Positions 1 through 44,340 of a DNA stretch of 44,636 nt are shown in pieces. How positions within the stretch are numbered: position 1 is the first letter of the stretch; each line of letters starts with the position of its first letter. This DNA comes from Bacteroidota bacterium (GTDB lineage Bacteria; Bacteroidota; Ignavibacteria; Kapaibacteriales; UBA2268). The stretch lies in the NCBI GenBank assembly GCA_021780815.1, contig JAJXYC010000010.1:1-44636 (forward strand), in the 5' to 3' direction. A program made the translations under genes and the position numbers. The notes beneath the pieces were generated by a model, which had not been told where the DNA came from, did not search any database, and was given only the letters and a program-made list of their open reading frames with translations.

Positions 1-3000
1 ATAAATTATAGTAGTTACAGAGGCGGAATCTACAATAGTAGAAATTATTTTGGCTTTATAGCCTGAAAAGTATTTTTGCAGGGAAAAAAATATCTACAAT
101 AGTAGAAATTATTTTGGCTTTATAGCCCAATAATCGTAACGAAAACACGATTACGATATCTACAATAGTAGAAATTATTTTGGCTTTATAGCCAACATCT
201 CTTTAAAATTAATCGCTGAATATCTACAATAGTAGAAATTATTTTGGCTTTATAGCCTAATAAATTATAGTAGTTACAGAGGCGGAATCTACAATAGTAG
301 AAATTATTTTGGCTTTATAGCCTGAAAAGTATTTTTGCAGGGAAAAAAATATCTACAATAGTAGAAATTATTTTGGCTTTATAGCCTAAATTTTCTATAA
401 TTGCCATATCGTCAGATCTACAATAGTAGAAATTATTTTGGCTTTATAGCCGACAATTTACAAGAAATTGATGATTTGAATCTACAATAGTAGAAATTAT
501 TTTGGCTTTATAGCCCGTAGTGTTTGGTCGCATTACTGCACAAATCTACAATAGTAGAAATTATTTTGGCTTTATAGCCCCATTGCCAACCAGTTGGGGT
601 AGTATTAATCTACAATAGTAGAAATTATTTTGGCTTTATAGCCTAAGCCAGTCCCCCCATCTGAAACCAAATCTACAATAGTAGAAATTATTTTGGCTTT
701 ATAGCCCATATAGCACTCATGAAATTATCGTGTTATCTACAATAGTAGAAATTATTTTGGCTTTATAGCCTCAGGTGAATTAACCCGCAGATTGGCTATC
801 TACAATAGTAGAAATTATTTTGGCTTTATAGCCATAACAGACAAGGTGTTTTTATGCATAATAATCTACAATAGTAGAAATTATTTTGGCTTTATAGCCC
901 CGTCGAGGTAGTCGATGAATATAGAATCTACAATAGTAGAAATTATTTTGGCTTTATAGCCTTGTTAACTGGCGAAGGTGAGATGTTTAATCTACAATAG
1001 TAGAAATTATTTTGGCTTTATAGCCCTTTTTCGGGTTTTGCTTTTTGCAACATCTACAATAGTAGAAATTATTTTGGCTTTATAGCCTTAATTGATGCCA
1101 AAAAAAAATATGGGAAGATCTACAATAGTAGAAATTATTTTGGCTTTATAGCCGATGCAATCAAGGAACAACAAATAAATATCTACAATAGTAGAAATTA
1201 TTTTGGCTTTATAGCCTTTAGCTTTTCAGGGGGGGTTAATTGATGCATCTACAATAGTAGAAATTATTTTGGCTTTATAGCCTTCAATGTTTCTATAATT
1301 GCCATATCGTCAGATCTACAATAGTAGAAATTATTTTGGCTTTATAGCCTCGAAAAATTCAATGCATTTTGATTTTCGTATCTACAATAGTAGAAATTAT
1401 TTTGGCTTTATAGCCCAATAACATTTGATTTTCAAAAAACAAATATCTACAATAGTAGAAATTATTTTGGCTTTATAGCCATTGGTAGTTGTGTATTTCA
1501 AGGTATTAAATCTACAATAGTAGAAATTATTTTGGCTTTATAGCCGATGGATTCGATGAATTTGCAGCATTCGAATCTACAATAGTAGAAATTATTTTGG
1601 CTTTATAGCCCCGAAAAAGCACACAAACCACAGCCGAAATATCTACAATAGTAGAAATTATTTTGGCTTTATAGCCTATTATTCTTGCAGTTGGCTTCTG
1701 CAAATCTACAATAGTAGAAATTATTTTGGCTTTATAGCCCTGATTCAATCAGACAGGTTATAATTTAATCTACAATAGTAGAAATTATTTTGGCTTTATA
1801 GCCTTCGAATCGGCTGGATGGAACGAAGAAATCTACAATAGTAGAAATTATTTTGGCTTTATAGCCTCCTATTCAAAGAATAGGGAAACATTAAATCTAC
1901 AATAGTAGAAATTATTTTGGCTTTATAGCCCCGAATAATAGCATTCTCTCGAATAATTATCTACAATAGTAGAAATTATTTTGGCTTTATAGCCAAGGTA
2001 AAAAAATGGACAAACAAATTGAATCTACAATAGTAGAAATTATTTTGGCTTTATAGCCTTGCTAAGAAATGCAGAAGAATTATACAAATCTACAATAGTA
2101 GAAATTATTTTGGCTTTATAGCCAGAAACCGTAAACGATAACAATAACAAATCTACAATAGTAGAAATTATTTTGGCTTTATAGCCGTCAAATACGAACC
2201 ATTCAGGGGGTTTCCATCTACAATAGTAGAAATTATTTTGGCTTTATAGCCTTGTGAAGTGAAAGACTTCGCAAGAAATCTACAATAGTAGAAATTATTT
2301 TGGCTTTATAGCCCGACACGATTAAAATGCAAACAACACAGATCTACAATAGTAGAAATTATTTTGGCTTTATAGCCCAACTTTTGTAAGTGATTGCAAA
2401 GCTGATCTACAATAGTAGAAATTATTTTGGCTTTATAGCCACTTCTACGATGCTGAAGGCTATGACCGTATCTACAATAGTAGAAATTATTTTGGCTTTA
2501 TAGCCTAAAAAAAATGTACAATGACCAATTTACAATCTACAATAGTAGAAATTATTTTGGCTTTATAGCCCTTAAATCATGCAAAAATAGCCCGTTTCAT
2601 CTACAATAGTAGAAATTATTTTGGCTTTATAGCCCATCTTACTGATTTTCTCGAAGGTAATGATCTACAATAGTAGAAATTATTTTGGCTTTATAGCCCT
2701 AAAGAATTTAAAGCATCTATTTTTTTAATCTACAATAGTAGAAATTATTTTGGCTTTATAGCCCGCCTGCCATGATGGAACAACCGATAAATCTACAATA
2801 GTAGAAATTATTTTGGCTTTATAGCCCGAGACAAACAAGAATACAAACAACAAATCTACAATAGTAGAAATTATTTTGGCTTTATAGCCCTAACGTTGCT
2901 GATGGGTAAGTATTAATCTACAATAGTAGAAATTATTTTGGCTTTATAGCCGTCAACAGGACTGTTAGCAAAAGCTACATATCTACAATAGTAGAAATTA

Positions 3001-6000
3001 TTTTGGCTTTATAGCCACTATGGCGATAATGCTCGGCTATTTTGGATCTACAATAGTAGAAATTATTTTGGCTTTATAGCCAGGTTTTTCGGACTTACTC
3101 CCGAAAACGATCTACAATAGTAGAAATTATTTTGGCTTTATAGCCCCTCGTTATCTCAGGAGAGGTTCAATTTAGAATCTACAATAGTAGAAATTATTTT
3201 GGCTTTATAGCCGCTATGCTTCGACGGCATCAGTACGACATCTACAATAGTAGAAATTATTTTGGCTTTATAGCCATTTTTAGCATACAAGCAAATATTG
3301 TGCATCTACAATAGTAGAAATTATTTTGGCTTTATAGCCTAAATGAATTTGAAGAAACAACAAAAAAATCTACAATAGTAGAAATTATTTTGGCTTTATA
3401 GCCGTTATGCTTCTATCGGGTAAGAATGCAGATCTACAATAGTAGAAATTATTTTGGCTTTATAGCCTTTTTCGCCGGATTTTCCGACCCATCCTTATCT
3501 ACAATAGTAGAAATTATTTTGGCTTTATAGCCTTTTCACGGTTAGACTGCTTGCCTTCCTGATCTACAATAGTAGAAATTATTTTGGCTTTATAGCCTTT
3601 GTAGAGCTGCAAGCGTGTTATTGGCAGATCTACAATAGTAGAAATTATTTTGGCTTTATAGCCTTGCTCGTATTCTGGACTTACTGATGAATCTACAATA
3701 GTAGAAATTATTTTGGCTTTATAGCCCGAACTAATCCAAGCGGTACGGGTACAACATCTACAATAGTAGAAATTATTTTGGCTTTATAGCCATGATAAAA
3801 ACCGAGACCAACTGGTAAAATCTACAATAGTAGAAATTATTTTGGCTTTATAGCCTCCCGCTCACTAAAGCCGAAGTTTACATCTACAATAGTAGAAATT
3901 ATTTTGGCTTTATAGCCTCGAAAGCTCCTCCGAACTTGCCTTTAATCTACAATAGTAGAAATTATTTTGGCTTTATAGCCCCAATTAACTGAGGTGTTAT
4001 AATGTATCCCATCTACAATAGTAGAAATTATTTTGGCTTTATAGCCCGCAGCTCGAATACGACATTACATTGGGATTATCTACAATAGTAGAAATTATTT
4101 TGGCTTTATAGCCTCTGGTAAAGAGGCATCGCAAGAAGCTAAAATCTACAATAGTAGAAATTATTTTGGCTTTATAGCCTCAATATTATCGTCAGAGGCG
4201 AAGACTCATCTACAATAGTAGAAATTATTTTGGCTTTATAGCCAATGTGGGAAAAACGACAATCCCGGAATATCTACAATAGTAGAAATTATTTTGGCTT
4301 TATAGCCTTTCATCGAGACGTTCCTTCCTTTCGCATCTACAATAGTAGAAATTATTTTGGCTTTATAGCCAGGCTGTTACTTCGATAGTCGAACCAACAT
4401 CTACAATAGTAGAAATTATTTTGGCTTTATAGCCAATTCAACCCTTTTGTAAATTCTCTTAATCTACAATAGTAGAAATTATTTTGGCTTTATAGCCTTC
4501 ATTAGGCTACTGTTACGGCATATAAATCTACAATAGTAGAAATTATTTTGGCTTTATAGCCAAGTATCGAATTACGATTCTCTTTTTAAATCTACAATAG
4601 TAGAAATTATTTTGGCTTTATAGCCTCTGGTAAAGAGGCATCGCAAGAAGCTAAAATCTACAATAGTAGAAATTATTTTGGCTTTATAGCCTTTGTTTAA
4701 TTCTGTTCATTGAATTTTATCTACAATAGTAGAAATTATTTTGGCTTTATAGCCCAATAATTACACCAATAGTAAATATAATATCTACAATAGTAGAAAT
4801 TATTTTGGCTTTATAGCCCGCCGTTATTATAATCAGCAATCAGCAAATCTACAATAGTAGAAATTATTTTGGCTTTATAGCCGCATTTATGTTTGTGTTT
4901 TCGTAATATTTATCTACAATAGTAGAAATTATTTTGGCTTTATAGCCGCGTTCGGTAATAATACGGACATAAATTATCTACAATAGTAGAAATTATTTTG
5001 GCTTTATAGCCAAAAAGTGTTTTAAGGTAAAAAAAAGGAAATCTACAATAGTAGAAATTATTTTGGCTTTATAGCCTCTTGTTGATTCAACCCGTGCATC
5101 ATATCTACAATAGTAGAAATTATTTTGGCTTTATAGCCCCTTGGTTGGCAATATCATGGTTTTTGATCTACAATAGTAGAAATTATTTTGGCTTTATAGC
5201 CCACCATACGAATTAATCAATATTTATTATCTACAATAGTAGAAATTATTTTGGCTTTATAGCCCATGATAAAATCTTGAGAGAATCAGCAAATCTACAA
5301 TAGTAGAAATTATTTTGGCTTTATAGCCTTACCTCGACGGGTTTCAATTCAATATATCTACAATAGTAGAAATTATTTTGGCTTTATAGCCATACAGCGT
5401 TAATATGCGGATCAATTAAATCTACAATAGTAGAAATTATTTTGGCTTTATAGCCGTAATTATTACTTATAATCAAATGGCAAATCTACAATAGTAGAAA
5501 TTATTTTGGCTTTATAGCCCTTTCAACGAATTAGCAAAATCATTTGCATCTACAATAGTAGAAATTATTTTGGCTTTATAGCCCCATATTCAGAGATTTA
5601 TCGACATGCTCCATCTACAATAGTAGAAATTATTTTGGCTTTATAGCCTTTGACGTTGTTGATGACGTCAACACCATCTACAATAGTAGAAATTATTTTG
5701 GCTTTATAGCCCCCTGTCGAACAAGTAGAAACAACAGTATCTACAATAGTAGAAATTATTTTGGCTTTATAGCCAAACTTCGTAAGGTGTCAATCCTTGT
5801 TATCTACAATAGTAGAAATTATTTTGGCTTTATAGCCTGCAAATGTCAGAATTGGTGACTATGTCATCTACAATAGTAGAAATTATTTTGGCTTTATAGC
5901 CTATCGAAGTTACCGAAGAAGAAACCGATCTACAATAGTAGAAATTATTTTGGCTTTATAGCCATGGGGCGGCGAAAATATCCACATTCCATCTACAATA

Positions 6001-7630
6001 GTAGAAATTATTTTGGCTTTATAGCCTATACAGATGCTATCTCTAATGCTAAATCTACAATAGTAGAAATTATTTTGGCTTTATAGCCATGTTTTTTTTC
6101 AAAAAAATATAAATAATCTACAATAGTAGAAATTATTTTGGCTTTATAGCCACAATCGCAATGAAAGCACGATTATGAATCTACAATAGTAGAAATTATT
6201 TTGGCTTTATAGCCATTTCATGCTCCTTGAATTTTTTTTGTATATCTACAATAGTAGAAATTATTTTGGCTTTATAGCCGGTATACATCGCGGCATCTGT
6301 CATTCCAAATCTACAATAGTAGAAATTATTTTGGCTTTATAGCCTTATTAATGGCGGTAGCGGTTCTACTTGGATCTACAATAGTAGAAATTATTTTGGC
6401 TTTATAGCCTGTTGTTCGAGGTTGCCGCGATTAGAATCTACAATAGTAGAAATTATTTTGGCTTTATAGCCCCACAATTGGCTCCAATTCCACAATTGGT
6501 GATCTACAATAGTAGAAATTATTTTGGCTTTATAGCCTCCTATTCAAGGAATAGGGAAACATTAAATCTACAATAGTAGAAATTATTTTGGCTTTATAGC
6601 CAGAAAATTGGAGATTTTAAGACGTTTACATCTACAATAGTAGAAATTATTTTGGCTTTATAGCCTAATTGTTCAGTTAGGGGGTTGGCTCAAATCTACA
6701 ATAGTAGAAATTATTTTGGCTTTATAGCCTTTGCAAGCGGAAACGCTCCCAAGTTAATCTACAATAGTAGAAATTATTTTGGCTTTATAGCCTTGTAATT
6801 TCTGTCGATAAATATCCAAATCTACAATAGTAGAAATTATTTTGGCTTTATAGCCCAATACTCCGACTAAGGAGATATTTCAAATCTACAATAGTAGAAA
6901 TTATTTTGGCTTTATAGCCTATTTTTAAAAACTCGATGAACAAAATATCTACAATAGTAGAAATTATTTTGGCTTTATAGCCCAGAAGCCCCAGAAAAAC
7001 TGAATTCAATATCTACAATAGTAGAAATTATTTTGGCTTTATAGCCTTTACAAGAAAAAAATAATAACAAACAAATCTACAATAGTAGAAATTATTTTGG
7101 CTTTATAGCCGGAAGTATCATAAGTGCAAGCTATATGTTTATCTACAATAGTAGAAATTATTTTGGCTTTATAGCCACCAGCAGGATTACAGTTTTACGG
7201 TAGCATCTACAATAGTAGAAATTATTTTGGCTTTATAGCCGTGAAATGTTTCATAGATATTTTATTTTAAATCTACAATAGTAGAAATTATTTTGGCTTT
7301 ATAGCCTTAAAGAAGTAGAGGGAAAAAATGAGTAATCTACAATAGTAGAAATTATTTTGGCTTTATAGCCGGAAAGCTCCAATAATTAGTATGCCTTATA
7401 TCTACAATAGTAGAAATTATTTTGGCTTTATAGCCGATTGTACCGTATGGCATATTGTTATCGACATCTACAATAGTAGAAATTATTTTGGCTTTATAGC
7501 CTTAAATCCTGGTGTTACAATTGAAGAAAATCTACAATAGTAGAAATTATTTTGGCTTTATAGCCTTACAGCGTATATGCGAACAAATTACACAATCTAC
7601 AATAGTAGAAATTATTTTGGCTTTATAGCC
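1..7630 (-). CRISPR. Type V-A CRISPR array, 119 repeats, truncated at left edge
   Basis: By hand I count 119 copies of one 36-bp repeat (first at 28-63, last at 7595-7630) with 118 complete spacers of about 26-31 nt and a partial spacer at 1-27. All copies look identical, including the most leader-distal ones, so the true array end lies beyond the window. Read on the minus strand the repeat ends in AATTTCTACTATTGTAGAT, the canonical Cas12a crRNA handle (TCTAC/GTAGA stem, TATT loop). Its 5' part, GGCTATAAAGCC, can fold into a second small hairpin. Transcription is therefore leftwards, in the same direction as the cas genes, with the newest spacers near 7630. Some spacers are duplicated or nearly so (see findings). 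Open reading frames crossing the array are translations of the repeats, not genes. Confidence 0.99.
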
Positions 7631-7806: not shown

Positions 7807-8082
7807 TTAAGGGAAATATAGCAAATCTTGGTCTCTATGAATTGCGTTCCCATATTTTGTAGTTTTATTGTTATCTGTTTCAAAAATCAAAATACTATCT
7901 CCGCCATCAAATTGTTTTGCAAATTTACTTTCTATTTTAATTTTTAAAACCTCTTGTATTCTTTTTGTATTATTGACTTCAAAAACGGAATACTGCAAAC
8001 GAATACCACCATTTTGTTCTAACATTTTAGAGAACTGCCTTCTTAGCTTATCATCTGATATATCATAACTTACTATTAACAT
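7807..8082 (-). CDS. cas2: CRISPR-associated endonuclease Cas2
   Basis: This 91-aa protein is of normal Cas2 length. It opens with the beta-strand motif MLIVSYDISD, with the conserved Asp at residue 7, and has the ferredoxin-like pattern of the family, including the QYSVFEV strand. Cas2 dimers bridge two Cas1 dimers in the spacer-integration complex. The gene is the last of the operon, starts 7 bp after the cas1 stop codon, and is followed directly by the leader and array. Family assignment is firm from the motif, length and position. Confidence 0.96.
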   Translation of the reverse strand: MLIVSYDISDDKLRRQFSKMLEQNGGIRLQYSVFEVNNTKRIQEVLKIKIESKFAKQFDGGDSILIFETDNNKTTKYGNAIHRDQDLLYFP

Positions 8083-8089
8083 AAGATAT

Positions 8090-9061
8090 TTATTTAATTA
8101 AAAAGCGTGGAAAATTAGGGACGCTTTTCCTTTGCATAAAAGCTCTATAATAATCCCTAACATATACAAAAACATTGGATTTATATTGGATTAATTCATC
8201 ATAAAACATTTTTGTATAAATACTATTTTTTTCATATTTTAGAACATATTCATTTTTAAATAGGTTAAAGTCTTCATTTTTACATTGTTTTGTATTAAAA
8301 GCATTACGTACTTTTCTGTCAATGATACACCTAAAAGGTTCAACTAAATCGCAAATTAACGATTTACGTCTAAACCATAATTTATGGTACACACCTATAT
8401 ATGGGTCAAAGCCAAATAATCTAACGAATGATTCTATAAAATTGAATAAGATGGTGTATCCGATATCGAGAGTAGAATTTAAGGGATCTATTTTTGCTCT
8501 TGGGTACCGTGATTTCCAACCTAAATCTTTAAAATAAGCGGAGAAATAAGTTTTTGCAACACGTCCTTCTAAGCTTAATAACGAATCATAATCGCTAATA
8601 TCAGGAATAGATAATAATGATTTTTTACATTGGTCTTTTGCTTTTTGAATTGTATCTATTTTCAATCTAGTATTAGTTAATATTTTAAGTTGATTTTGTA
8701 TTTTATTTTCAACTAAAATTTTCGGGATTTGCAAATCGTTTTTGTCGTATTCGTATTGTTTTTGTCTTAATAAATAATTGGCTTCGGCAGTAATAGAAAA
8801 GAAAAAAACAGGGCGAAAATTAGTTTTCGTAACAACAATTGGAATTCCGTATTTCGTGCATTTATCTATTAATGCTGTTGTGATAGATATATGCCCAATA
8901 ATGAAAAGTGCTAAAATTTTTTGGAATGGTATTTTGGTTAAAGTTTTATTTTCTTTTGTATCTTCGAGAAAAAGTTCTCCATTAACAACTCTTAAAGTTT
9001 TGTTATCTAAGCAGTTGATAACGAATATAGAACGAAATTCAATATCTTTATTCGTAAACAT
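8090..9061 (-). CDS. cas1: CRISPR-associated integrase Cas1
   Basis: At 323 aa this has a typical type V Cas1 length. The metal-binding triad is visible: Glu165 in SLEGRVAKTYF, His226 in GVYHKLWF, and Asp238 in CDLVEPFR, with the expected spacing. Cas1 inserts new spacers at the leader end with Cas2, and Cas4 selects and trims prespacers. The start codon lies within the end of cas4 (14-bp overlap), suggesting translational coupling. Nothing appears degenerate, so spacer acquisition is probably functional, consistent with the long array. Confidence 0.97.
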   Translation of the reverse strand: MFTNKDIEFRSIFVINCLDNKTLRVVNGELFLEDTKENKTLTKIPFQKILALFIIGHISITTALIDKCTKYGIPIVVTKTNFRPVFFFSITAEANYLLRQKQYEYDKNDLQIPKILVENKIQNQLKILTNTRLKIDTIQKAKDQCKKSLLSIPDISDYDSLLSLEGRVAKTYFSAYFKDLGWKSRYPRAKIDPLNSTLDIGYTILFNFIESFVRLFGFDPYIGVYHKLWFRRKSLICDLVEPFRCIIDRKVRNAFNTKQCKNEDFNLFKNEYVLKYEKNSIYTKMFYDELIQYKSNVFVYVRDYYRAFMQRKSVPNFPRFLIK

Positions 9062-9614
9062 TATTTACCTCAGTTTTATCGCATAAATTGCTATAAATAC
9101 AGTGTGAACATTTATTTTTATTAGTTTGGATAACATCAGCGGGATTATAATTTTTAAATTGATTAATAAAGTTAATTAATTCGTTTTTATTTTCAGTTGT
9201 TGGGATATTAATAGGGAATAATTTGTTGTCAGATAATGAATAAAAAGCTAATTTGTTTATTGAATAACCCATCTCGGTCATACAGAAGTATTGTGCCCAA
9301 ATTTGATAATATTGTCCTTGATAGATAGTAGAAAGTTTGTATTTTCTCTCTACAAGTAATTTTTCTTTTGTTTTATATATATCAATTTTTCCAATTACAC
9401 CAAGTTCATTACTATAAACAGATAAAGAAGTTATTTCATTTTTGTGAGTAGAATATGTTTTGTTATCAATTGATAGATGTATTTCTTTTCCTTGTGCTTG
9501 TGGTGGGGCAGTAACCAGATTTTCATCTCCGCCCATATACACATTATGTAAATAAATAGAATATGGGCAAAAGATGAAATCGTTAAGGGATGATATGGGT
9601 ATATACTCAAACAT
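9048..9614 (-). CDS. cas4: Cas4 Fe-S exonuclease of the adaptation module
   Basis: The 188-aa protein carries the Cas4 signature: Cys16 in the FCPYS motif and a C-terminal trio Cys169, Cys172 and Cys178 that together would hold a 4Fe-4S cluster. The PD-(D/E)xK nuclease core is visible as Asp78 in GKIDIY and Glu89-x-Lys91 in VERKYK, followed by a QxxxY-like helix (QGQYYQIWAQY). In type V-A systems Cas4 helps choose prespacers with the right PAM and sets their orientation. The gene begins 2 bp after the stop of the second effector and overlaps cas1 by 14 bp, so it sits inside the same operon. Confidence 0.95.
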   Translation of the reverse strand: MFEYIPISSLNDFIFCPYSIYLHNVYMGGDENLVTAPPQAQGKEIHLSIDNKTYSTHKNEITSLSVYSNELGVIGKIDIYKTKEKLLVERKYKLSTIYQGQYYQIWAQYFCMTEMGYSINKLAFYSLSDNKLFPINIPTTENKNELINFINQFKNYNPADVIQTNKNKCSHCIYSNLCDKTEVNNVYE

Positions 9615-9616
9615 GG

Positions 9617-12600
9617 CTATAAATTTTGCAACCCTCTTTTTGCAATATTGAATGCAGCGATTTTATCATTGTCATCTAAGCTTTCAAGTCCCAATGGATT
9701 ATTCTTGTTATGGAAACCACATTTACTACAATAAAATACTTTAATCTTTTTATCTTCAAGATAATTAGGATTTTTACTACTTGCATAAGCTTTTTCGTTA
9801 CAGTTTGGACAAGTTAAACTTGTATCTTCTTCGCTTACAAATTTGATTAAGCCAAATTGTTTTATAGTTTCATTTTTAGGTTGCTTATTTTCTTTTACTG
9901 GAAATTTTTCAATCTCTCTTAATTTAATAAGTTCGCTAATGGGAGGCACCAATCCTTCTTGCTGAAACTTTCGATACAATGCCCATTCGAAAGGTCTTTC
10001 AATGTTGCCTTCAAAATTTTTTCTGTCCGATTCAACTTTGGTTTGCTTTAAATCTTCAATTGAAATAATGCCCGGATATTGCTGATACAAGAAATAAATT
10101 ACACCTATCATATTACCCACTAAAGCTCTTCGTGTCTGGTTAATTTGTTTTTCTGCTTTTGCTTCATTTTTTTTTTGATTGGCAAAATAGGCAAACAGGT
10201 CATCTCTAATTTTCTGATGAGGTTTAATATGTTCAAAATCCACTCTGCTTATATAAATTTTATCTTCTTTTCCTTCTATTTCCAAATAGAGGTTGAAATC
10301 TTTTTCTTTTAATTCAGCTTGTGGATTTATAATTAATTTCTGATATATTTTTCGATGAGCGTGCAATATTTTTAAATTTAAGAGAGTGGTTATGTCACCA
10401 TTTGTTACAATCTTTCCATTTATCACTTTAGCAGTGGTTAAATCAATAGAAGACACCTGTTTTTCTCCAAACAATTCATTGAATGTATCCTGAAATTTAC
10501 CATCTCTGAATGTTTTGTCATAAAGATCTTTATTCAAAAAATAGGATAAGTTTTGAATTGCTTTGTAAGGATTATTGCGTATCATCAATTCATGCTCTTT
10601 GTTATAAATGTATCCTTGTTTGGAAAAATCCAATTTTTTAAGTTCATAAACAGTAAACAATTGTGGTTTTTTGTCTTTATTCATTAATGCTAAAGTTGCT
10701 AATTCCACCTCTCCTGCATCAATACCATAAAACCATAACTTATTGTTGTTGAGGTTTTCTTTTAGCGTCCGATTAATTTTATCGTTAAACTTACCGATTT
10801 CAGTTCCTTTGGTCTTTGTATCCTTAAAAGCAAAAGTAATCTCGTTGCTCAATGCATTATCTGTAAATGTTGTGTTAAGAGTATATTGCTCATGCAAATA
10901 TCTGTTTCGTTTTGTCGGGTCATACAATTTAGAGTCTTTTCCGTATTTTTCTACTCTTGTTTTCTTTGCTATTCTCCAACTAATTGATATTTCAGGATTC
11001 AGACGCAGATTGTAGTTCTGTTCTTCATTTTGTTTTGTCCAGAAGCGCTTCCAAATTTGTGTGTGTGCTTTCAGATTCTTTTGTTCATCTTTTTGCAAAT
11101 CAAGGCTTGTAATCTTAAATATTTGAGCATTATACTTCTCAAGTATTTCTTTTTTCAATGTTTCGGAAACGATTTGCTCCTTTGCATAACAACACTTTTC
11201 CAAGGCTATTTGAAAATCTTGTAAAGAGGTAAATGATTGAACCGCCACTTCATCAAAAACACTTTTAGGCAAAGCCAAATTATTTTTTACAAAATCAGTT
11301 TTTAAAACTTCCTGATAGAAAGATATTAATTTAGGTTCATCTATTTCTTTATCGTCTTTGCTTTTATAAAAACAGAATTCTCCAAACTCTTTTTGGTTAT
11401 ATTTAGGCAATTCTTTTTGGATTTCAGGTAAAAAAGTATTGCCGTTTATCCCAAAGCATAATTTGCGTAATGCACGATAAGTCATAGATTCAAAATAATA
11501 TAATGAAGGATTTGAACATTTGTGTTCCTCTTTTGACGCACGAACCTCTTTATAAACTTCAAACGCATTTTCTTTAGGGATTAAAATCAATGAATGTTTT
11601 TGTTTTTCTTCTAAAACTAAAGCCCAATATTGTAACCTTTGCGAATCAATTCGTTCCTTTTCTATTTCTTTTATTTGGGCTTCTAGTCTGCCTTTTTTGG
11701 CTGCAATTTCTTTATATAACTGACGAATTTTAATGTAAGTTTTAAATTTTTTTTTGAAATAACTACTTCTCTCTCTTTTTAATTTAGTTATCTCCTTCTG
11801 AAGATGTTGAGCTTCGGAACTGCTTTTTGAAAGTAAACTTTTGGCTTTACTTTTTTCTGTTATCTTGTTTGTGAGTTTTATAAACTCTGCATATTTATCC
11901 GATTCGATTTGAAATAAAGGGAACTTACTTTTTAAATCATTATAACCTAAACCAGTGGAAACAGCTTCTAAAAATTTTGATTTTTGATAAGATTTGCATT
12001 CTTTGATTTTTGAATAGAATTCTACCAAAGGCAATTCTTTGGAAGCGATTATCTTTAATTCTTTAAGTATCTTGTCATAATCAGGTTTGCAATATCTTGA
12101 ATCCAATTGTTTTTTAAGTTGATCAATTTCTTTATCAAAATCCTTTCGTTTTTTATTGACTGTATAATAATTAAAACTTGCTTTGGCTATTACAATGCCC
12201 GAAGATTGGGAAGGTAAATAATTCTGTTCTGCTATACTTAATACCTCTTCAAATTTATTAAGTAAAGCCGTTAGTTTGCTTTTCGTTTTTTCGGTGTTTT
12301 TGTCATTGCTATTTTCAACAAAGCTTTTTATAAACGGGAACATTTGTCTTGTTCCAAGTTTCTTGATTGAAAGAGCAATTTCTGCATCTCTTGTTTTAGA
12401 TTCTTCTGGTCTATTGCTATCGGTATTTAATCTTTCAATAGTGGTTTTCCATTCATTAATAAATTCATCAAATACATATGATAAATAATTAACATCGTTG
12501 ATTTTGATTTTCTTTTCTGTATCGTCTTTTTTCCAATTGTAAAACAAATCTTTGGTAAATAAACGCAACCAACGAAAATGAATAGTGATATTTGATTTTA

Positions 12601-12802
12601 GCTTATGATTGTCATCAAATCTGATAAATTCATCCAACATCTTCGGTAATTCTTGCCCCATTTGAATCAATTTCAAAAGATAATTCTTTTTTGATTCTTC
12701 TGTAGAAAAATTTTGTAGATTTTCAATTTGATTACTTATGCCCTGAATTTTATCAGGCACTAATTTGAATCGAATGCTTTTTGTGATTTTATATTTTTTC
12801 AT
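9617..12802 (-). CDS. cas12a2: Second Cas12-family effector, Cas12a2/Cas12a3-like RNA-triggered nuclease
   Basis: This 1061-aa protein shares only the general Cas12a plan. Its N-terminus (KKYKITKSIRFKLVP) resembles the start of the Cas12a WED domain. The RuvC acids are intact: Asp695 (GIDAGE), Glu916 (ISIEDL) and Asp1046 (DNDKIAAFNIAKRG). Between the last two is a zinc ribbon (Cys998, Cys1001, Cys1025, Cys1028) where Cas12a has its Nuc domain. Residues about 310-400 are lysine-rich and likely coiled coil. Cas12a2 proteins are known to sit beside cas12a, share its crRNAs, carry a zinc ribbon and, when activated by target RNA, degrade nucleic acids and arrest the cell. Cas12a3, a related clade, is reported to cut tRNA tails. 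The protein seems shorter before RuvC than the Cas12a2 of about 1180 aa that I remember. Which clade it belongs to cannot be settled by eye, so the symbol is provisional. Confidence 0.8.
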   Translation of the reverse strand: MKKYKITKSIRFKLVPDKIQGISNQIENLQNFSTEESKKNYLLKLIQMGQELPKMLDEFIRFDDNHKLKSNITIHFRWLRLFTKDLFYNWKKDDTEKKIKINDVNYLSYVFDEFINEWKTTIERLNTDSNRPEESKTRDAEIALSIKKLGTRQMFPFIKSFVENSNDKNTEKTKSKLTALLNKFEEVLSIAEQNYLPSQSSGIVIAKASFNYYTVNKKRKDFDKEIDQLKKQLDSRYCKPDYDKILKELKIIASKELPLVEFYSKIKECKSYQKSKFLEAVSTGLGYNDLKSKFPLFQIESDKYAEFIKLTNKITEKSKAKSLLSKSSSEAQHLQKEITKLKRERSSYFKKKFKTYIKIRQLYKEIAAKKGRLEAQIKEIEKERIDSQRLQYWALVLEEKQKHSLILIPKENAFEVYKEVRASKEEHKCSNPSLYYFESMTYRALRKLCFGINGNTFLPEIQKELPKYNQKEFGEFCFYKSKDDKEIDEPKLISFYQEVLKTDFVKNNLALPKSVFDEVAVQSFTSLQDFQIALEKCCYAKEQIVSETLKKEILEKYNAQIFKITSLDLQKDEQKNLKAHTQIWKRFWTKQNEEQNYNLRLNPEISISWRIAKKTRVEKYGKDSKLYDPTKRNRYLHEQYTLNTTFTDNALSNEITFAFKDTKTKGTEIGKFNDKINRTLKENLNNNKLWFYGIDAGEVELATLALMNKDKKPQLFTVYELKKLDFSKQGYIYNKEHELMIRNNPYKAIQNLSYFLNKDLYDKTFRDGKFQDTFNELFGEKQVSSIDLTTAKVINGKIVTNGDITTLLNLKILHAHRKIYQKLIINPQAELKEKDFNLYLEIEGKEDKIYISRVDFEHIKPHQKIRDDLFAYFANQKKNEAKAEKQINQTRRALVGNMIGVIYFLYQQYPGIISIEDLKQTKVESDRKNFEGNIERPFEWALYRKFQQEGLVPPISELIKLREIEKFPVKENKQPKNETIKQFGLIKFVSEEDTSLTCPNCNEKAYASSKNPNYLEDKKIKVFYCSKCGFHNKNNPLGLESLDDNDKIAAFNIAKRGLQNL

Positions 12803-12808
12803 ATTACA

Positions 12809-15800
12809 TTATTTTTTAAAATTTTGCACAAACTGTAACCATTCTTTATTGCTAATTGCTAATTTAAGTTTTTTCAAATCTTCGGTTTGTTTTATTTGTT
12901 CAATTACCCAAAGTCCTTTTCGAGCAATGTTATATGCTCCGTTGGCATCGGCATTTTTTGGCAAATTATCGCTAGCCAGACGGCTATCGAAGAAAACGCC
13001 ATTTTTGTCAGCAACAGGCGAAATCAAATAGTCTATATCCGTACCTGTTATGCTATTGCGCATTTGCAAAGTGAGTTTTAATAAATGGAGCAACCATTCA
13101 AAAAAGGCTTTTTCGGTTTGCCGGTTAATGGCAACTTTAAGTTCTTCGTTGCTTTTATACCTTATGCCGTATTGCTCAAATAAATTTATAAACTCTTCAG
13201 TCAGTAAAATTTCACGATTATCCCATTGATTGTTTTTTTTCGGATTGCGGAAAGTTTCAATCCTATCTTTGTAGGTGCAAAGTGTCCATTGGGTTTTAGT
13301 GCCTTCGGCTTTAGTCGTAAAATTATTGTAGTCAAATTCAAACTCAAAATAGTTCTTTGTTTGATTATAACGTATTGAGTTGAATTTATCGAAGAAAGAT
13401 TTTGCTTTTTCCATATTTTCGTAGCGGGTATCAAACAGGTTTACAAAACCTGTTACGGGGTCCATTTTGCTAGTATTCCAAGCGGGAATATAAAACAGGA
13501 ATCCGCTCTGTTTTTGGTTCCTAAGTGAATCTATATTATAAATTCCAGTTAATTGTAATGCATGCAATATTCCTCCTCTTTCGTCCGAACTTTTCTTCTT
13601 ATCTACTAAGTAATTCAGTTTGTCAATCAGCATTTTTTCAAATTTCTGATATACTTGTTTTTCCACTTTTTGCCGACCACGCATAAAACCCATGTTCAGG
13701 TCTTCGAGCACTACAATGGCGTTGTATTCCACCATCAACTCACTTATTTTATGAATTACCTGACTCAGATAACCCTCTTTCAGCTCTTTGATGGTTTCAA
13801 TGGTTTTCCAGTTCTTGCGGGCTTCGTCACGGTTGCCTTCGCGGTTATCAAGCAATTTGTGATAATCGGTTTTGTAGGTTTTATCCTCATATTCGTTTAC
13901 AATCTCGTTGAGCGAGAATTGTTTTTTGATAGCTCCCTCACTATCAATAAGCGTAAGATACAGCAAATGCCTTTCACCCCGGTCGATACCAATAATATAT
14001 CTCTCTGAATTTTCTTTTAGGCTTTCTAAGGCTTTGTGATTAATTTTCTCGTTGAAAGATTGTATAAATTTTAATGCAGGAACTTTCAACGGAGCTTTAA
14101 AGTTCATGGTTATAGGCACATGAAACTGAAATTTGTCCACCGTGTAGCGTTTGTCTTTGATTATATCGTATTCAAACCGGCTTTGCCTTTTGGCATTCTG
14201 TTCATTCTTATTGTTTATGGCTTTGTGAGCTTTGTGTACAATTATATTTTCGGGCTTTATGCTCGATTTACGGAAGAACACCTCGGCTTGTCCATTCAGT
14301 TTATATACTACATCTTTCAGATTATCGGCATCGAAAAGCATTTTCCAGTAAAGCGTGTGCAGGTTGGGAGTTCCTTTGCTGTTAGGCGAAAAGTCTTTGT
14401 TGTAAAGTTGGAAAAGATAAAGATTGCCTTCTTCCACCAATTGATTAATATAACTTTCGGGAATTTTTTTGAAATTTATTTTATATCCTTGATGTTCCAC
14501 TTCCCTGTAAAATTCGCTTAAATCATTATAACTTTTCGTGTCCGAAAATTGAAATTCAAAGTGCTTCCAATCTTCGTGTTTGTTTATAGATGATTTAAAG
14601 AAATCAATTAATTCGTGGCAATGTTGAAGATTAAATTTATCTCCTTTTTTATGAGTTTCGTTCTGATAATGTTCCAGCAGTTCGGTACTTGGCTTAAATT
14701 CGTTAATTCTGGAGTTAGAAAAGAAAACTTTTGGGAGCATTTTATTGGCACCAGGCAAAAGTTTATATTCCATTTTTTCATAACAAGTTTCGTTGGTGTT
14801 TTCAAAATCTTTTTTAAAGATTTTGTTGTATTTTTTGTTCATAATACCTAAGTAATACAGCCCGTCTTTTCTAAAAATGAGGCTGGTATTATCGGATTCT
14901 TTGTTTACATCCCAACCGCCTAACAATGTTGAATTTTCGAAATTCAATTTTATTTTTTCGGTCGAATATGGTTTACGGGTCATGTAATTTCGCACTTTGT
15001 TGTAAAGCGGCGTAATTTGGTCGAGTGTCATCCAAAGCGAAGTGAATTCACCGTAAAACCGTTCATCTTTTTCCGCTTCATTGCCTTTACCCAGCAAAGG
15101 CTTTATAAACCATTGCAGGTTTTTTATGCTGTCGAGAAAAAGTTTGATTTTATCCACACTAATTTGGTCGTGTGCCAAGTCTTTCTCTTTCGGAAATGGA
15201 TTATTAAGCAAATCTGTAATTTGATGGTAATTATTTTGAATTTGAAGAAACAAGTTTTCTGTTTTTTCTTCTTCGGTGTTCCGTTTGCCCAATTGTTTGA
15301 AATAATCTTCTATTCTTTTGTGATAATCGGTATTGTCAAGCAAAAGCAAACATTCATTTATAAAACCAATAGAAAAACTATCCTGATTTCTGAAATATTT
15401 CTTTTGTTCTTCTTCATACTTTTCTGTCCCTGGCTTTTTCTTCCCTTTGTAATTCATGTCAAACCAAGCATTCATGGCTTTCTGGAACACTTCCCAATTG
15501 CCAAACATTTTTTGTGAAATATCGGTTAAGTTTAAATCTTTGCGCAGGTATATTTTATGCAAATCAAAATCATGCAGGTTTTGAAGGAGTTCTTTTAATG
15601 GAGATAAAGCATGTATGTTGATTTCCTGATACAGTTTTTCAATACTTTCTAATACTTCGTTTCCATCTTTAAATTCTTCGGGAATAAACGAAGCAGTTGA
15701 GCGGTCGCTCAATATTTGTTTGAAAAGCGGTTTCAGCTTTGGAATCCGTTCTTCTTTTTTAGCCGTTTGATTAAATAAGTTGATGTATTCGTTTAATCCT

Positions 15801-16570
15801 TTTATTTTTTCTTTACCATCTTCGGGAGTAAATCCGCCAATTAAATGATTATAAATATCAATGCCTGTTTGTGAAAGCGTTTTATTAAAATATTCCAGCG
15901 AAAACATTTCTTCAACCGAAGGTACTTGAATAATAAGTCCTAATTCATTATCAGAAAGTATTATCTGAAATTTTTCTTTAATCGGCGAGCTTTTTATTTT
16001 TTCGAAAGTCCGCATATTATCCAAAAACTTGGGCAGGTTTTGATGAATAAGACGGTACGCAATGGCGGTGGATTTATCTTCGGCGGAATACATATTTTTC
16101 CGGTTTTCGTGAAAACCTGTAAAGTAAGTAGTAAAGTTATCAAATTCTGCTATTAGTTTTTTTTCTTCTTCAGTTTGAACGAATGCTTTTAAATCGTTTT
16201 TAATTAATTCTTTTTCAAAAAGATTTTTATAATGCTTATGTTTAGTAAATCTATCGGCAATTTGTTTTCGTAATTTCGCTTGTAGCTCTTCAAACTTTTT
16301 CTTTTCTTCTTCGCTTCTTTTCGATTTTTTATATAATTCCTCATATTCTTTTAATCCGGTTAAGTTAAATTCTTCCAGCGCCTTTGTAATAAATACTTTG
16401 TGGTATTCATCAATGATTTTTTTTACTAATATGTAACTTTCGGCTCTATGTTTGTCTTCTTTTAATAATTCGTTTGTTCTTACTAATTCCAATGTTCTTC
16501 CCTGTGGGATTAATTCAAAACGTAATGTCTTTTGAATTGAATACAAATTTGTAAAATTATTCATAGACAT
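12809..16570 (-). CDS. cas12a: Cas12a (Cpf1) crRNA-guided DNA endonuclease
   Basis: The protein is 1253 aa from the ATG at 16570. I prefer this start because GGAGG lies 5 nt upstream; the reading frame also has an ATG at 16582, but that codon overlaps the GGAGG. Hallmarks, numbered from 16570: PAM-reading loop LLPGANKMLPKVFF with Lys610; pre-crRNA processing residues His779, Lys788 and Lys805 with the same spacing as His843/Lys852/Lys869 of the Francisella enzyme; RuvC acids Asp863 (GIDRGERH), Glu956 (VVLEDLN) and Asp1208 (NADANGAYNIA); and the Nuc arginine Arg1171 (LQMRNS). All known functions (crRNA maturation, T-rich PAM reading, staggered dsDNA cutting) should be intact. It is the first gene of the operon; the second effector starts 6 bp after its stop codon and may depend on Cas12a for crRNA processing. 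Confidence 0.98.
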   Translation of the reverse strand: MSMNNFTNLYSIQKTLRFELIPQGRTLELVRTNELLKEDKHRAESYILVKKIIDEYHKVFITKALEEFNLTGLKEYEELYKKSKRSEEEKKKFEELQAKLRKQIADRFTKHKHYKNLFEKELIKNDLKAFVQTEEEKKLIAEFDNFTTYFTGFHENRKNMYSAEDKSTAIAYRLIHQNLPKFLDNMRTFEKIKSSPIKEKFQIILSDNELGLIIQVPSVEEMFSLEYFNKTLSQTGIDIYNHLIGGFTPEDGKEKIKGLNEYINLFNQTAKKEERIPKLKPLFKQILSDRSTASFIPEEFKDGNEVLESIEKLYQEINIHALSPLKELLQNLHDFDLHKIYLRKDLNLTDISQKMFGNWEVFQKAMNAWFDMNYKGKKKPGTEKYEEEQKKYFRNQDSFSIGFINECLLLLDNTDYHKRIEDYFKQLGKRNTEEEKTENLFLQIQNNYHQITDLLNNPFPKEKDLAHDQISVDKIKLFLDSIKNLQWFIKPLLGKGNEAEKDERFYGEFTSLWMTLDQITPLYNKVRNYMTRKPYSTEKIKLNFENSTLLGGWDVNKESDNTSLIFRKDGLYYLGIMNKKYNKIFKKDFENTNETCYEKMEYKLLPGANKMLPKVFFSNSRINEFKPSTELLEHYQNETHKKGDKFNLQHCHELIDFFKSSINKHEDWKHFEFQFSDTKSYNDLSEFYREVEHQGYKINFKKIPESYINQLVEEGNLYLFQLYNKDFSPNSKGTPNLHTLYWKMLFDADNLKDVVYKLNGQAEVFFRKSSIKPENIIVHKAHKAINNKNEQNAKRQSRFEYDIIKDKRYTVDKFQFHVPITMNFKAPLKVPALKFIQSFNEKINHKALESLKENSERYIIGIDRGERHLLYLTLIDSEGAIKKQFSLNEIVNEYEDKTYKTDYHKLLDNREGNRDEARKNWKTIETIKELKEGYLSQVIHKISELMVEYNAIVVLEDLNMGFMRGRQKVEKQVYQKFEKMLIDKLNYLVDKKKSSDERGGILHALQLTGIYNIDSLRNQKQSGFLFYIPAWNTSKMDPVTGFVNLFDTRYENMEKAKSFFDKFNSIRYNQTKNYFEFEFDYNNFTTKAEGTKTQWTLCTYKDRIETFRNPKKNNQWDNREILLTEEFINLFEQYGIRYKSNEELKVAINRQTEKAFFEWLLHLLKLTLQMRNSITGTDIDYLISPVADKNGVFFDSRLASDNLPKNADANGAYNIARKGLWVIEQIKQTEDLKKLKLAISNKEWLQFVQNFKK

Positions 16571-17280
16571 GATATCCTCCATTATTTTGATTTATAATTT
16601 GTTTATTGAAAAAAATAATATCAATAATGTTATTCTTTTGCTATTTAATTTATCAAATTCGTTTGTATAGTGAGAACTCAACTGGATTTGTAGTATTATT
16701 GCTGACTTAATATTGCAATTTGTTTCTGTTGAGTTAATTCGTTGTAAGTATCTTTATCAAAATTACGAAATTTTTGCCAATTCACAACAGATATTTTTTT
16801 AAATTTATAAAAATTAATTCACAATATTCTACTATATTTTATTTCAATATAAATCATAAATTTGCAAAAATTTAAAATTAAAATTTCAATTTAATATCTT
16901 GATTATTTATTTAAAAATATCTATGGAACTTGAATTTGAGATAGATTGTAAATATAAATTAACTGCCAATAGAAGCAAAAAACTTAGTAGAACAATTGAT
17001 TGAGTGATTAATGTCTCTAATGATAATAAGCGACGTATTTTTGTAATTTAAATTGTTAAATAAATAAAATGAATCTGGACATAAAGAAGCAATGCCGCAT
17101 CACGATATTTGTATTTATTGAAATTTCCATATAATTGTTCTTTTGTACTTTTATTGGTCTTGTATTTTTTGTAAAGCAAATCTATTTAGTATTTTTGATT
17201 ATCGTGTTAGCATAATTTTTTATTTGCGGGATGTATAAAATAAAGATTGTTTACACTTCTTATGCAGGTTATTTCTATAA
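16571..17280. other. AT-rich intergenic region upstream of cas12a
   Basis: About 700 bp without a convincing gene. It contains the candidate cas promoter (16758-16787) and an untranslated leader of roughly 170-180 nt with an inverted repeat AACTCAAC (16675-16682) / GTTGAGTT (16728-16735). A 26-codon frame at 16923-17003 (plus) is too short to support. No second CRISPR repeat or tracr-like anti-repeat was seen here. Confidence 0.6.
16758..16787 (-). promoter_or_regulatory. Candidate promoter of the cas operon
   Basis: On the minus strand TTG (16785-16787) is followed by 19 nt and TAATTTTG (16758-16765), matching the Bacteroidota TTG / TAnnTTTG pattern. The same -7 octamer occurs in the CRISPR leader. 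It would give a cas mRNA with a leader of about 170-180 nt. In DNA this AT-rich a chance match is possible; the position upstream of the first operon gene supports it. Confidence 0.5.
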
Positions 17281-17362: not shown

Positions 17363-20185
17363 TTATTTTTTACTTTTTTTGTCTTTTTTGTCTTTTTTGT
17401 CAGACTTACCTTTTTTATCCTTTTTGTCTTTAGTCTTTTCAGCAATAGCATCTTTGATAGCGGCACGAGCAGCAGCAAGGCGAGCAATAGGTACTCTAAA
17501 AGGAGAGCAAGAGACGTAATTTAATCCGATTGAATGGCAAAATTCTACTGAAGCAGGTTCGCCGCCGTGTTCACCACAAATACCAATTTTTAAGTTTTGT
17601 TTAGTTTCTCTTCCTGCTTTAACAGCGTGTTTCATTAAAAATCCAACGCCAGTTTGATCAATAGAAACAAATGGGTCTATATCATAAATTTCTTTAGCGA
17701 CATAAGTAGGCAAAAAGCGACCTGAATCATCACGGCTTAATCCCAGAGTAGTTTGGGTTAAGTCGTTAGTTCCAAAGGAGAAAAATTCAGCAACTTGAGC
17801 AATATCGCCGGCAGTGATAGCGCCACGAGGTACTTCAATCATAGTACCAACCATATAATCAAATTTAATTCCTGTTTCATTCATTACATCATCTGCAACT
17901 TTGCGAACAATTTCTTCTTGATTTTTCAATTCTTTAACATTTCCGACAAGAGGAATCATAACTTCAGGAAAAACTTCTTGTCCGGCTTTTTTAACGTTGA
18001 CGGCGGCTTCGAAAATAGCACGAGATTGCATTTCAGTAATTTCAGGATAAATAAGTCCTAATCTGCATCCACGAAAACCGAGCATAGGATTAAATTCAGC
18101 AAGAGATTCCACGCGTTCTTTAATTTTTTGGAGGGAAACGCCCATAGCCTTAGCCATTTCTTTTTGTCCAGTTTCATCGTGAGGTAAAAATTCGTGTAAA
18201 GGTGGGTCAATTGTTCTGATTGTAACAGGACGTCCATCCATAACCTTAAAGATACCTTCGAAGTCAGTTCTTTGTAGAGGTAAAATTTTAGCTAGTGCTT
18301 TTTTACGAGATTCGGTGTCGTCAGAAAGAATCATTTCACGCATTGGACCAATTTTCCCTTCACCGAAGAACATATGTTCGGTACGAGTAAGACCAATACC
18401 TTCAGCACCAAAAGCAATAGCGTTTGCACTTTGGTCCGGTTGGTCAGCATTAGTGCGGATTTTGAGTTTTCTGTATTTATCAGCCCAAGTCATAATTTCA
18501 TTATACATTTGGAAAATAGGAGCGTCTTTTGGGTCCAATATTTTATTAATAAGGACAGATACAACTTCACTTGGTTTATTAGGAATATTTCCTAAAAGAA
18601 CTTCACCAGTAGAACCATCAATAGAGATGAAATCGCCTTCTTTAACTTCAATATTTTTTCCTTCAACTTTGAAAACTCTTGCTTTATAATCAACGTTTAA
18701 AGCACCGCATCCAACGATACAAGTTTTTCCCATTTGGCGAGCAACCAAAGCGGCATGTGAAGTCATACCACCTCTAACAGTTAAAATTCCTTCGGCGGCA
18801 TTCATACCGGCAATATCTTCTGGAGAAGTTTCAAGTCGAACTAGAATAACTTTTTCACCTTTGCTTGCCCAATCAACAGCATCTTCGGCATTAAACACAA
18901 CTTTACCAGAAGCGGCACCAGGACCTGCGTTCAAACCTTTTGCAATTAATTTCCCTGTTTTTAACATTTCTGATTTTGCATTTGAATCGAATACAGGTCG
19001 GAGTAATTGATTTAATTGGTCAGGTTCAATTCTCATTAAAGCTTCTTTTGGTTTGATTCGGCCTTCTTTAACCATATCGTAAGCTATTTTAACAGCGGCA
19101 AATGCGGTACGTTTTCCGACACGGCATTGTAGCATATATAAGCGACCTTCTTGTATTGTAAATTCAATATCGAGCATATCACGGTAATGGTCTTCAAGGA
19201 TTTTGCGGATTTCAAGAAGCTGTTCGTAAGATTTCGGGTCTTGTTCTTTTAAAGTGCTTATTGGTTGAGGAGTTCTAATGCCAGCAACTACATCTTCACC
19301 TTGTGCATTCATTAAATATTCGCCATAGAACTCATTGTCTCCTGTTGCGGCATTTCTTGTAAAAGCAACTCCAGTACCACTTGTTTCTCCTAAGTTACCA
19401 AACACCATAGCCTGCACGTTTACAGCAGTTCCCCAAGATTCAGGAATACCATTCAATTTTCTATAAACTTTGGCACGGTCGTTCATCCAAGAGCCAAAAA
19501 CAGCACCGATTGCTCCCCATAATTGGTCCATTGGGTCATTTGGGAAATCCATCCCTAACTTATCTTTAATTGCTTTTTTGAATTCTACAACTAATTCTTT
19601 TAAATCATCAACGTTAAGTTCAATATCGTGTTTAATTCCCCGAGCATGTTTTTTTGCTTCAAGAATTTCTTCAAATGGGTCAATGTCATCTTTTGTTTGT
19701 GGTTTTAACCCAAGCACAACGTCGCCATACATAGCAACAAACCTACGGTAGGAATCATAAGCAAATCTTTCATTCCCAGATTTTTTAATTAAACCTTTGA
19801 TAGTAATATCGTTTAAACCTAAATTTAAAACTGTATCCATCATACCGGGCATTGATGCACGAGCACCAGAACGAACTGATACCAATAATGGATTTTCAGA
19901 ATCTCCAAATTTTGCTCCAACTTCTTTTTCCATTTGAGCTAACGATGTTTCGACGTGTTTCTTTAAATCTTTAGGATAAGTTTGTTTGTTTGAATAATAA
20001 TAAGTACATACTTCTGTTGAAATTGTAAAACCAGGTGGTACAGGCAATTTCAAGTTTACCATTTCTGCTAAATTTGCACCTTTTCCACCTAATAATTCTT
20101 TCATTTCGGCAGTTCCGTCTGCTTTTTTTCCTCCAAAGTAATATACGTACTTTGAAGTATTAGTTTTTGCTTTCTTATCAGACAT
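17363..20185 (-). CDS. ppdK: Pyruvate, phosphate dikinase with lysine-rich C-terminal tail
   Basis: This 940-aa enzyme interconverts pyruvate + ATP + Pi and PEP + AMP + PPi. Visible domains are the N-terminal ATP-grasp part ([38 protein letters not shown]), the swivelling phosphohistidine domain with His477 in [12 protein letters not shown], and the C-terminal PEP/pyruvate barrel ending in [10 protein letters not shown] with Cys870. The family is usually about 870-900 aa; the excess is a tail from about residue 917 made almost only of Lys, Asp, Ser and Gly, encoded by short near-repeats. In an anaerobic-type metabolism it links glycolysis to the 2-oxoacid:ferredoxin oxidoreductase encoded downstream. 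A -7-like TAATTTTG lies at 20222-20229. Confidence 0.97.
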
Positions 20186-44227: not shown

Positions 44228-44340
44228 ATTTACTTGTTCTGTTTTTGACTATTTTTCTTTAAAAATAGATGTGTTCTTTGAAAATTGGAAAATCACTAAT
44301 GCGAAAAGTTGCGAAAATTAATTAACAAATTTTATAATTC

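What the first reader, a model, noticed from the sequence alone, without database searches (positions are those of the whole stretch)
9617..16570. Tandem Cas12a and Cas12a2/Cas12a3-like effectors in one operon feeding on one array
Seen: two Cas12 proteins 6 bp apart in the same operon as cas4-cas1-cas2 and one array with a Cas12a handle. Both have intact RuvC acids. The second has a four-Cys zinc ribbon in place of a Nuc domain. Known: Cas12a2 nucleases sit beside Cas12a, share crRNAs and react to target RNA with collateral cleavage and dormancy; the related Cas12a3 is reported to cut tRNA tails. Inferred: a two-layer defence in which Cas12a cuts invader DNA and the second nuclease stops the cell if transcripts persist.
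Basis: partly seen in the sequence, partly recalled or inferred. Interest (0 to 1): 0.9.

Follow-up and report, generated by a model that had tools for sequence, protein, structure and literature searches.

The report
Cas12a with a compact Cas12a3-like partner
A bacterial CRISPR operon carries ordinary DNA-cutting Cas12a and, right behind it, a second nuclease related to the tRNA-cutting Cas12a3 but without the domain known to hold the tRNA; this second gene looks like an exchangeable cartridge that has moved between distant bacteria.

Summary
A 1257-aa Cas12a (RuvC acids intact) is followed after 6 bp by a 1061-aa second type V nuclease, then cas4, cas1, cas2 and a 119-repeat array, the only array with this exact handle in the assembly. 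The second protein is not Cas12a2: its only PDB matches are Cas12a3 (E 1e-143, 2e-129), and it groups with Cas12a3 at full support. It keeps the RuvC triad and a four-Cys zinc ribbon, but lacks the ~106-aa tRNA-loading domain through which Ba1Cas12a3 holds tRNA tails (37 residues where Ba1 has 120). Smithella sp. SCADC has the same operon and short form (74% identity), so this is no assembly defect. A third operon (G730) also lacks the domain; it is probably Smithella M82, source of the published tRNA-tail cutter Sm3Cas12a3. The second-effector gene is mosaic: exchanged between operons of distant bacteria, with a breakpoint at the zinc ribbon. Most likely it is an RNA-triggered RNase, probably trimming tRNA ends, sharing crRNAs with Cas12a; none of this was testable here. 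Tandem Cas12a/Cas12a2 operons and the back-up idea are already published. The compact domain-less form behind Cas12a and the cassette exchange are what this adds.

The parts
12809..16582 (-). Cas12a (type V-A DNA-targeting effector), 1257 aa, RuvC D867/E960/D1212, Nuc domain present
   Evidence: TIGR04330 1568.6 bits against a cut-off of 300; Pfam RuvC_1, REC1, REC2, NUC, PI; residues by motif
9617..12802 (-). Second effector, 1061 aa: Cas12a3-related, without the tRNA-loading domain; RuvC D695/E916/D1046; zinc ribbon C998/C1001/C1025/C1028; starts 6 bp after cas12a
   Evidence: phmmer to 21we E 1.2e-143 and Ba1Cas12a3 9hlx E 2.4e-129; profile search finds only these two PDB sequences; tree; domain arithmetic
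10238..10354 (-). Short linker (residues 817-855) standing where Ba1Cas12a3 carries the ~106-aa tRNA-loading domain
   Evidence: 37 residues between anchors here and in L009, 120 in Ba1Cas12a3 and in 21we (alignments)
9719..9811 (-). Zinc ribbon (residues 998-1028); the recombination junction seen in the Smithella SCADC copy lies at its start
   Evidence: Cys positions; reciprocal identity switch at L009 about 13000-13050
9048..9614 (-). cas4 (type V)
   Evidence: TIGR04328 247.4 bits
8090..9061 (-). cas1 (type V)
   Evidence: TIGR04329 413.9 bits
7807..8082 (-). cas2
   Evidence: PF09827 and TIGR01573
28..7630 (-). CRISPR array, 119 identical 36-nt repeats and 118 spacers, Cas12a handle; runs off the contig end and continues on contig C20
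   Evidence: repeat folds into two hairpins, z -3.66

Best explanation
The operon arms one crRNA pool with two nucleases. Cas12a cuts invader DNA. The second nuclease, a compact relative of Cas12a3 without the tRNA-loading domain, binds crRNAs from the same array, is switched on by complementary phage RNA and uses its RuvC site to cut host RNA, most likely the 3' ends of tRNAs, halting growth. It sits in a slot between cas12a and cas4 whose content (Cas12a2, or different Cas12a3 relatives) is exchanged by recombination. Shown here: operon, catalytic residues, Cas12a3 kinship, absence of the domain, single array, mosaic ancestry. Inferred: crRNA sharing, RNA activation, RNA substrate, growth arrest. 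tRNA ends as the substrate is the weakest step.
For: Only PDB matches are Cas12a3. hhalign of the three-protein group to Cas12a3: probability 100 over 987 columns; to Cas12a2 38.6, to Cas12a 63.6. Tree: grouped with Cas12a3 at 100/100. RuvC triad and zinc ribbon intact; Ba1 PFS-contact S469 is S439 here. Only one array with the handle in the assembly. Same gene order in L009 and L015. L015, also without the domain, is probably the source of Sm3Cas12a3, published to cut tRNA tails with sites shifted slightly upstream: its array has 23 spacers and its genome is given as 2.7 Mb, while published M82_1 has 2.75 Mb, a 23-spacer array on scaffold 536 and genes 536_53:54 related to a type V endonuclease. 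Mosaic.
Against: Deleting the domain from Ba1Cas12a3 substantially reduced cleavage of different RNA substrates (PMC12851939 section 9), so a natural protein without it may cut something else. The REC2 T-arm loop is not conserved (Ba1 R251/N253/K256/K257 against gap/D241/K244/I245, in a gapped stretch). G730 as M82 is an inference; its name is hidden. No convincing protospacer was found, so target type and flank are unknown. No Cas12a4 sequence was available to exclude that clade.
Confidence: 0.6

Rival explanations
1. RNA-triggered RNase with a different or broad RNA substrate: without the loading domain the RuvC site is open and cuts RNA generally, as reported for Cas12a4, rather than tRNA tails.
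For: The Ba1 tail-clamping domain is absent and the T-arm loop not conserved; published text ties tRNA preference to the domain and calls the group hyper-evolvable.
Against: If L015 is Sm3Cas12a3, a relative without the domain does cut tRNA tails.
Confidence: 0.27
2. A member of the published Cas12a4 clade rather than a Cas12a3 relative.
For: Cas12a4 could not be placed in the tree, as no sequence was available; Cas12a4 also has a zinc ribbon and cuts RNA.
Against: Strong match over most of the length to two Cas12a3 sequences of the PDB. The paper describes Cas12a3 and Cas12a4 as clades distinct from each other.
Confidence: 0.07
3. A Cas12a2-type effector that shreds DNA and RNA.
For: The same slot holds a Cas12a2 relative in G247.
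Against: No PDB Cas12a2 match at E<=10 with the profile; BLAST only 27 bits to the N-terminal half of SuCas12a2; hhalign 38.6.
Confidence: 0.03
4. A non-functional or merely regulatory relic of an effector duplication.
For: None found beyond rarity (1 of 123 genomes of its order, the own one).
Against: Full-length ORF with catalytic and zinc residues, 74% identical to the SCADC protein from a distant bacterium with the same linker length.
Confidence: 0.03

Closest known systems
Cas12a3 (Ba1Cas12a3, PDB 9HLX; PMC12851939)
   Same: 34% (Ba1) and 36% (21we) identity in BLAST alignments, RuvC triad, zinc ribbon, PFS-contact serine, clade
   Different: No tRNA-loading domain, REC2 T-arm loop not conserved, 1061 aa against 1168, encoded in tandem with Cas12a
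Sm3Cas12a3 (Smithella sp. M82; PMC12851939)
   Same: If L015 is this locus (inferred): same slot behind Cas12a, same absence of the loading domain
   Different: About 40% identity; 1217 aa with a longer REC region
Tandem Cas12a + Cas12a2 loci with shared array (PMC9811890)
   Same: Two type V effectors in tandem beside one array; same proposed division of labour
   Different: Second effector there is Cas12a2, here a Cas12a3 relative
Smithella sp. SCADC type V-A locus (JQDQ01000121.1)
   Same: Same gene order, 6-nt gap, second effector 74% identical, 1064 aa with the same 37-residue linker
   Different: Cas12a only 57%, cas4 and cas1 39% identical; its zinc ribbon is like that of the G730 lineage

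Membership tests
Cas12a3 | Sequence kinship / clade with Ba1Cas12a3 | tested here: met
   (Cas12a4 not included)
Cas12a3 | RuvC triad and zinc ribbon | tested here: met
   D695/E916/D1046, four Cys
Cas12a3 | tRNA-loading domain (Ba1 residues 855-960) | tested here: not met
   37 residues instead of 120 between anchors. Whether it defines the clade is unclear: L015, probably Sm3Cas12a3, also lacks it. I file P0001 as Cas12a3-related, not as canonical Cas12a3
Cas12a3 | REC2 loop contacting the tRNA T-arm (R251, N253, K256, K257) | tested here: inconclusive
   1 of 4 positions keeps its residue (K244 for K256); alignment is gapped there
Cas12a3 | Absence of the Cas12a2 aromatic clamp | not tested
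   No C-terminal Cas12a2 sequence was retrieved
Cas12a3 | RNA-triggered cleavage of tRNA 3' tails | not testable with these tools
   needs biochemistry
Cas12a2 | Sequence kinship with SuCas12a2 | tested here: not met
   27 bits by BLAST against its N-terminal half, no profile hit to PDB Cas12a2 at E<=10
Cas12a4 | Clade with ApCas12a4 | not testable with these tools
   No sequence named Cas12a4 among the PDB hits or in the loci fetched
Cas12a | TIGR04330 and Nuc domain in the second protein | tested here: not met
Type V-A locus | cas12a, cas4, cas1, cas2 and an array with the Cas12a handle | tested here: met

The most novel reading that the evidence does not exclude
The position between cas12a and cas4 is an exchangeable ammunition bay. 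Operons that keep the same Cas12a swap the RNA-triggered killer behind it (Cas12a2, or various Cas12a3 relatives without the tRNA-loading domain) by recombination at conserved ends, the 3' end of cas12a and the zinc ribbon, across phyla. The compact form here reaches its RNA substrate by a mechanism other than the tRNA-loading domain.
Probability: 0.4. Interest if true: 0.8.

Novelty: new variant of a known kind. Interest (0 to 1): 0.62.

Why it matters
Cas12a3 is reported as a CRISPR effector that prefers tRNA tails, explained by one added domain. A related group that keeps the rest of the enzyme but lacks that domain lets one ask directly whether the domain is needed, what the ancestral substrate was, and how substrate choice evolves. 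The mosaic ancestry suggests that the second effector is swapped like a cartridge while the Cas12a stays, a way for one immune memory to be read by changing weapons. The 1061-aa form would also be a compact RNA-triggered nuclease sharing Cas12a crRNAs.

Tried and rejected
Cas12a2 identity was rejected on sequence. Plain Cas12a was rejected. Assembly truncation as the cause of the missing domain was rejected, because the SCADC copy has the same 37-residue linker. The AlphaFold2 model on the three-sequence alignment was useless (mean pLDDT 37), so no fold search was run and the domain claim rests on sequence alignment alone.

Protospacers. Against 119 relatives, 24 had a match at E<=0.01, the own genome included. 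Rechecked spacer by spacer in 26 loci (L018-L043 without L041, plus L046): 10 matches with at most 5 mismatches, best 3 of 29, none exact; shuffled spacers gave 0, but these loci had been picked with the real array, so that control is biased. Four of the 10 are one T-rich spacer (41) in G022 (the same site counted in L018 and L046), G011 and G020, with 5' flanks TTCT, TTCT and CATA. I do not count these as protospacers. Three patterns, covering 6 of 118 spacers, found nothing in viral contigs. No PAM or target could be derived.

Relatives: none in viral contigs, plasmids or phages. The PADLOC model search in 391 class genomes gave 4 hits (own, G247, G062, G302); G062 and G302 lie at E 9e-4 to 1e-3, where 3 of 14 control genomes ring too, and were dropped.

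Tree limits: 11 rows, the two Cas12a2 rows only N-terminal, long branches meet, and P0001+SCADC with G730 has 85/87 support only. A literature search for effector exchange returned one paper by listing, not opened.
Full report
What is there. On the minus strand the window holds a compact operon: cas12a (12809-16582), 6 bp, a second nuclease gene (9617-12802), 2 bp, cas4 (9048-9614), cas1 (8090-9061, overlapping cas4), cas2 (7807-8082), then the array. Cas12a is unambiguous (TIGR04330, 1568.6 bits against a cut-off of 300; RuvC, Nuc, REC1, REC2 and PI domains). The second protein has no Nuc or TIGR04330 match; PADLOC calls it Cas12a, best through two short models (934 and 950 positions; 1083.6 and 1043.5 bits). 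The same models score 1195.5 and 1160 bits on the SCADC protein, so relatives of this protein were already in that database under the name Cas12a. The array has 119 identical 36-nt repeats and 118 spacers in the window. It continues on contig C20, with 13 repeats found at up to 6 substitutions and 14 exact handles. The assembly has no other exact copy of the handle: 119 + 14 in all, 0 for the reversed control. So Cas12a-type guides come from this one array. That the second protein uses them is inferred; the Cas12a2 paper reports guide interchange between Cas12a and Cas12a2 (PMC9811890, passages).

What the second protein is. phmmer against the PDB finds two sequences at E<=0.1, both Cas12a3: 21we (E 1.2e-143) and Ba1Cas12a3 9hlx (E 2.4e-129). 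A profile of three relatives again finds only these two at E<=10. BLAST gives 487 and 503 bits to the Cas12a3 pair, 22 and 27 to the two partial Cas12a2 rows and 25-32 to the four Cas12a rows. hhalign gives 100% probability over 987 columns to Cas12a3, 38.6 to Cas12a2, 63.6 to Cas12a. In an 11-row tree it joins Cas12a3 at 100/100; long branches separate these from Cas12a and Cas12a2, and Cas12a4 is absent for want of a sequence. The catalytic residues D695, E916, D1046 match Ba1 D712, E1032, D1137 (phmmer alignment; the MAFFT alignment misplaces the last one), and four cysteines form the zinc ribbon.

What it lacks. In Ba1Cas12a3, residues 855-960 form the tRNA-loading domain that clamps the tRNA tail; removing it or mutating its adenosine-stacking residues reduced cleavage (PMC12851939: abstract, sections 4, 6, 8-10, 12, 14, 41, 49 and passages seen). 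Between fixed anchors Ba1 and 21we have 120 residues, the window protein and the SCADC protein 37. The G730 protein is also short: 53 residues to a point that is 45 in the window protein. The REC2 loop that touches the T-arm is not conserved (1 of 4 positions keeps its residue, in a gapped stretch). On the other side, K922 stands where Ba1 has K1038, a minor-groove contact (alignment; contact). The structure prediction failed (pLDDT 37), so this rests on sequence.

Relatives. Smithella sp. SCADC (L009) has the same operon: Cas12a 1250 aa, 6-nt gap, second effector 1064 aa (74% identity), cas4, cas1, cas2, 40 repeats. G730, in the same class, has Cas12a 1250 aa, 6-nt gap, second effector 1217 aa (40%), cas4, a deleted cas1, cas2 and 24 repeats. 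G247, in the window's own class, has Cas12a followed after 42 nt by a partial protein cut by the contig end and similar to 8d49 (E 2.5e-100); 8D49 is a Cas12a2 structure (PMC9849127, passages). Cas12a over cut-off was found in 3 of 294 and 2 of 154 genomes. One of these five (G092) is cut at the contig edge; in the other 4 of 4 a second type V effector follows directly. The samples are small. Matches to this kind of second effector were found in 1 of 60 close relatives, 1 of 395 phylum genomes and 1 of 123 order genomes (each time the own genome), in 2 of 155 genomes of the SCADC class and in 2 of 297 of its phylum.

A swapped cassette. SCADC and G730 share Cas12a at 94.5% amino acids and 85% at fourfold sites, and cas4 at 90%, yet their second effectors share 43% and 35% at fourfold sites (Fisher p 4e-23). 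In 60-nt windows identity is 92-100% through nearly all of the last 400 nt of cas12a, 27-63% in the windows shown inside the second effector, and 85-95% again from within its zinc ribbon into cas4, with single cas4 windows down to 75%. Conversely the window and SCADC, from distant bacteria, share the second effector at 74% (fourfold 55%) but Cas12a at 57% (33%), cas4 and cas1 at 39% each (24%, 20%) (p 2e-5 against Cas12a, 5e-5 against the cas genes). This identity stops where the SCADC-G730 identity starts, at L009 about 13000-13050, the first cysteine pair of the zinc ribbon. The simplest reading: the SCADC gene is a hybrid whose body came from a lineage like the window's and whose zinc ribbon stayed Smithella-like. 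Against the window the left-hand rise is gradual, not sharp, so the left breakpoint is clear only between SCADC and G730. The general claim, a slot with changing content, rests on four loci.

Function. The nearest tested protein may be L015 itself. Smithella sp. M82 yielded Sm3Cas12a3, reported to cut tRNA tails slightly upstream of the Ba1 sites and to need the tail cytosines. The M82_1 genome is published as 2.75 Mb with a 23-spacer array on scaffold 536 and genes 536_53:54 related to a type V endonuclease (PMC5606693, abstract and passages); G730 is given as 2.7 Mb with a 23-spacer array and two adjacent type V effectors. If they are the same, tRNA-tail cutting does not need the loading domain, and the window protein probably does it too. 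If not, its substrate is open. A library search for Cas12a3 or the domain name since 2025 listed two papers, only one on the subject.

Known versus new. Tandem Cas12a + Cas12a2 with one array and the back-up idea are in print. Not found in print, within searches: the compact form without the domain behind Cas12a, and the cassette exchange with its breakpoint at the zinc ribbon. No tool named the window's genome. That it is Bacteroidota-like, and so of another phylum than Smithella, is my inference from its Por secretion-tail proteins; at least it is not in the SCADC class, since the search of that class (155 genomes) did not return its copy.

Noticed in passing
L015 14877-15183: cas1 of the G730 locus is broken by an internal deletion relative to SCADC (about 670 nt), while cas2 and the array remain, so this locus probably no longer acquires spacers.
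   Followed up: partly
window 28-7630: Near-identical spacer pairs (17/90 differ by one base; 99/113 and 23/117 are variants of each other) and exact duplicates (47=55, 114=118) suggest repeated acquisition from variants of the same invader, or array rearrangement.
   Followed up: no
L044 (G000:C20) 324-869: The distal repeats carry an A-to-G change (GCCGAAAT) absent from the 119 window repeats, marking the presumably old end of the array.
   Followed up: no
window 44338-44636: Nine copies of a 32-nt tandem repeat at 97% matches running to the window end.
   Followed up: no
phage record MT835469.1 147126-147175: A fecal phage record matches 11 pieces of the array at one 50-bp place, at 88%, perhaps a single repeat-like element.
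   Followed up: no
window 17363-20182: The gene just upstream of cas12a is a pyruvate phosphate dikinase/PEP-utilising enzyme; of the nine other neighbours tested with Pfam, eight match metabolic or secreted-protein families and one (31591-34071) matches nothing.
   Followed up: partly
L018/L046, L029, L032: T-rich spacer 41 has relatives with 3 to 5 mismatches in three genomes of the same family, perhaps a conserved T-rich element rather than a protospacer.
   Followed up: partly
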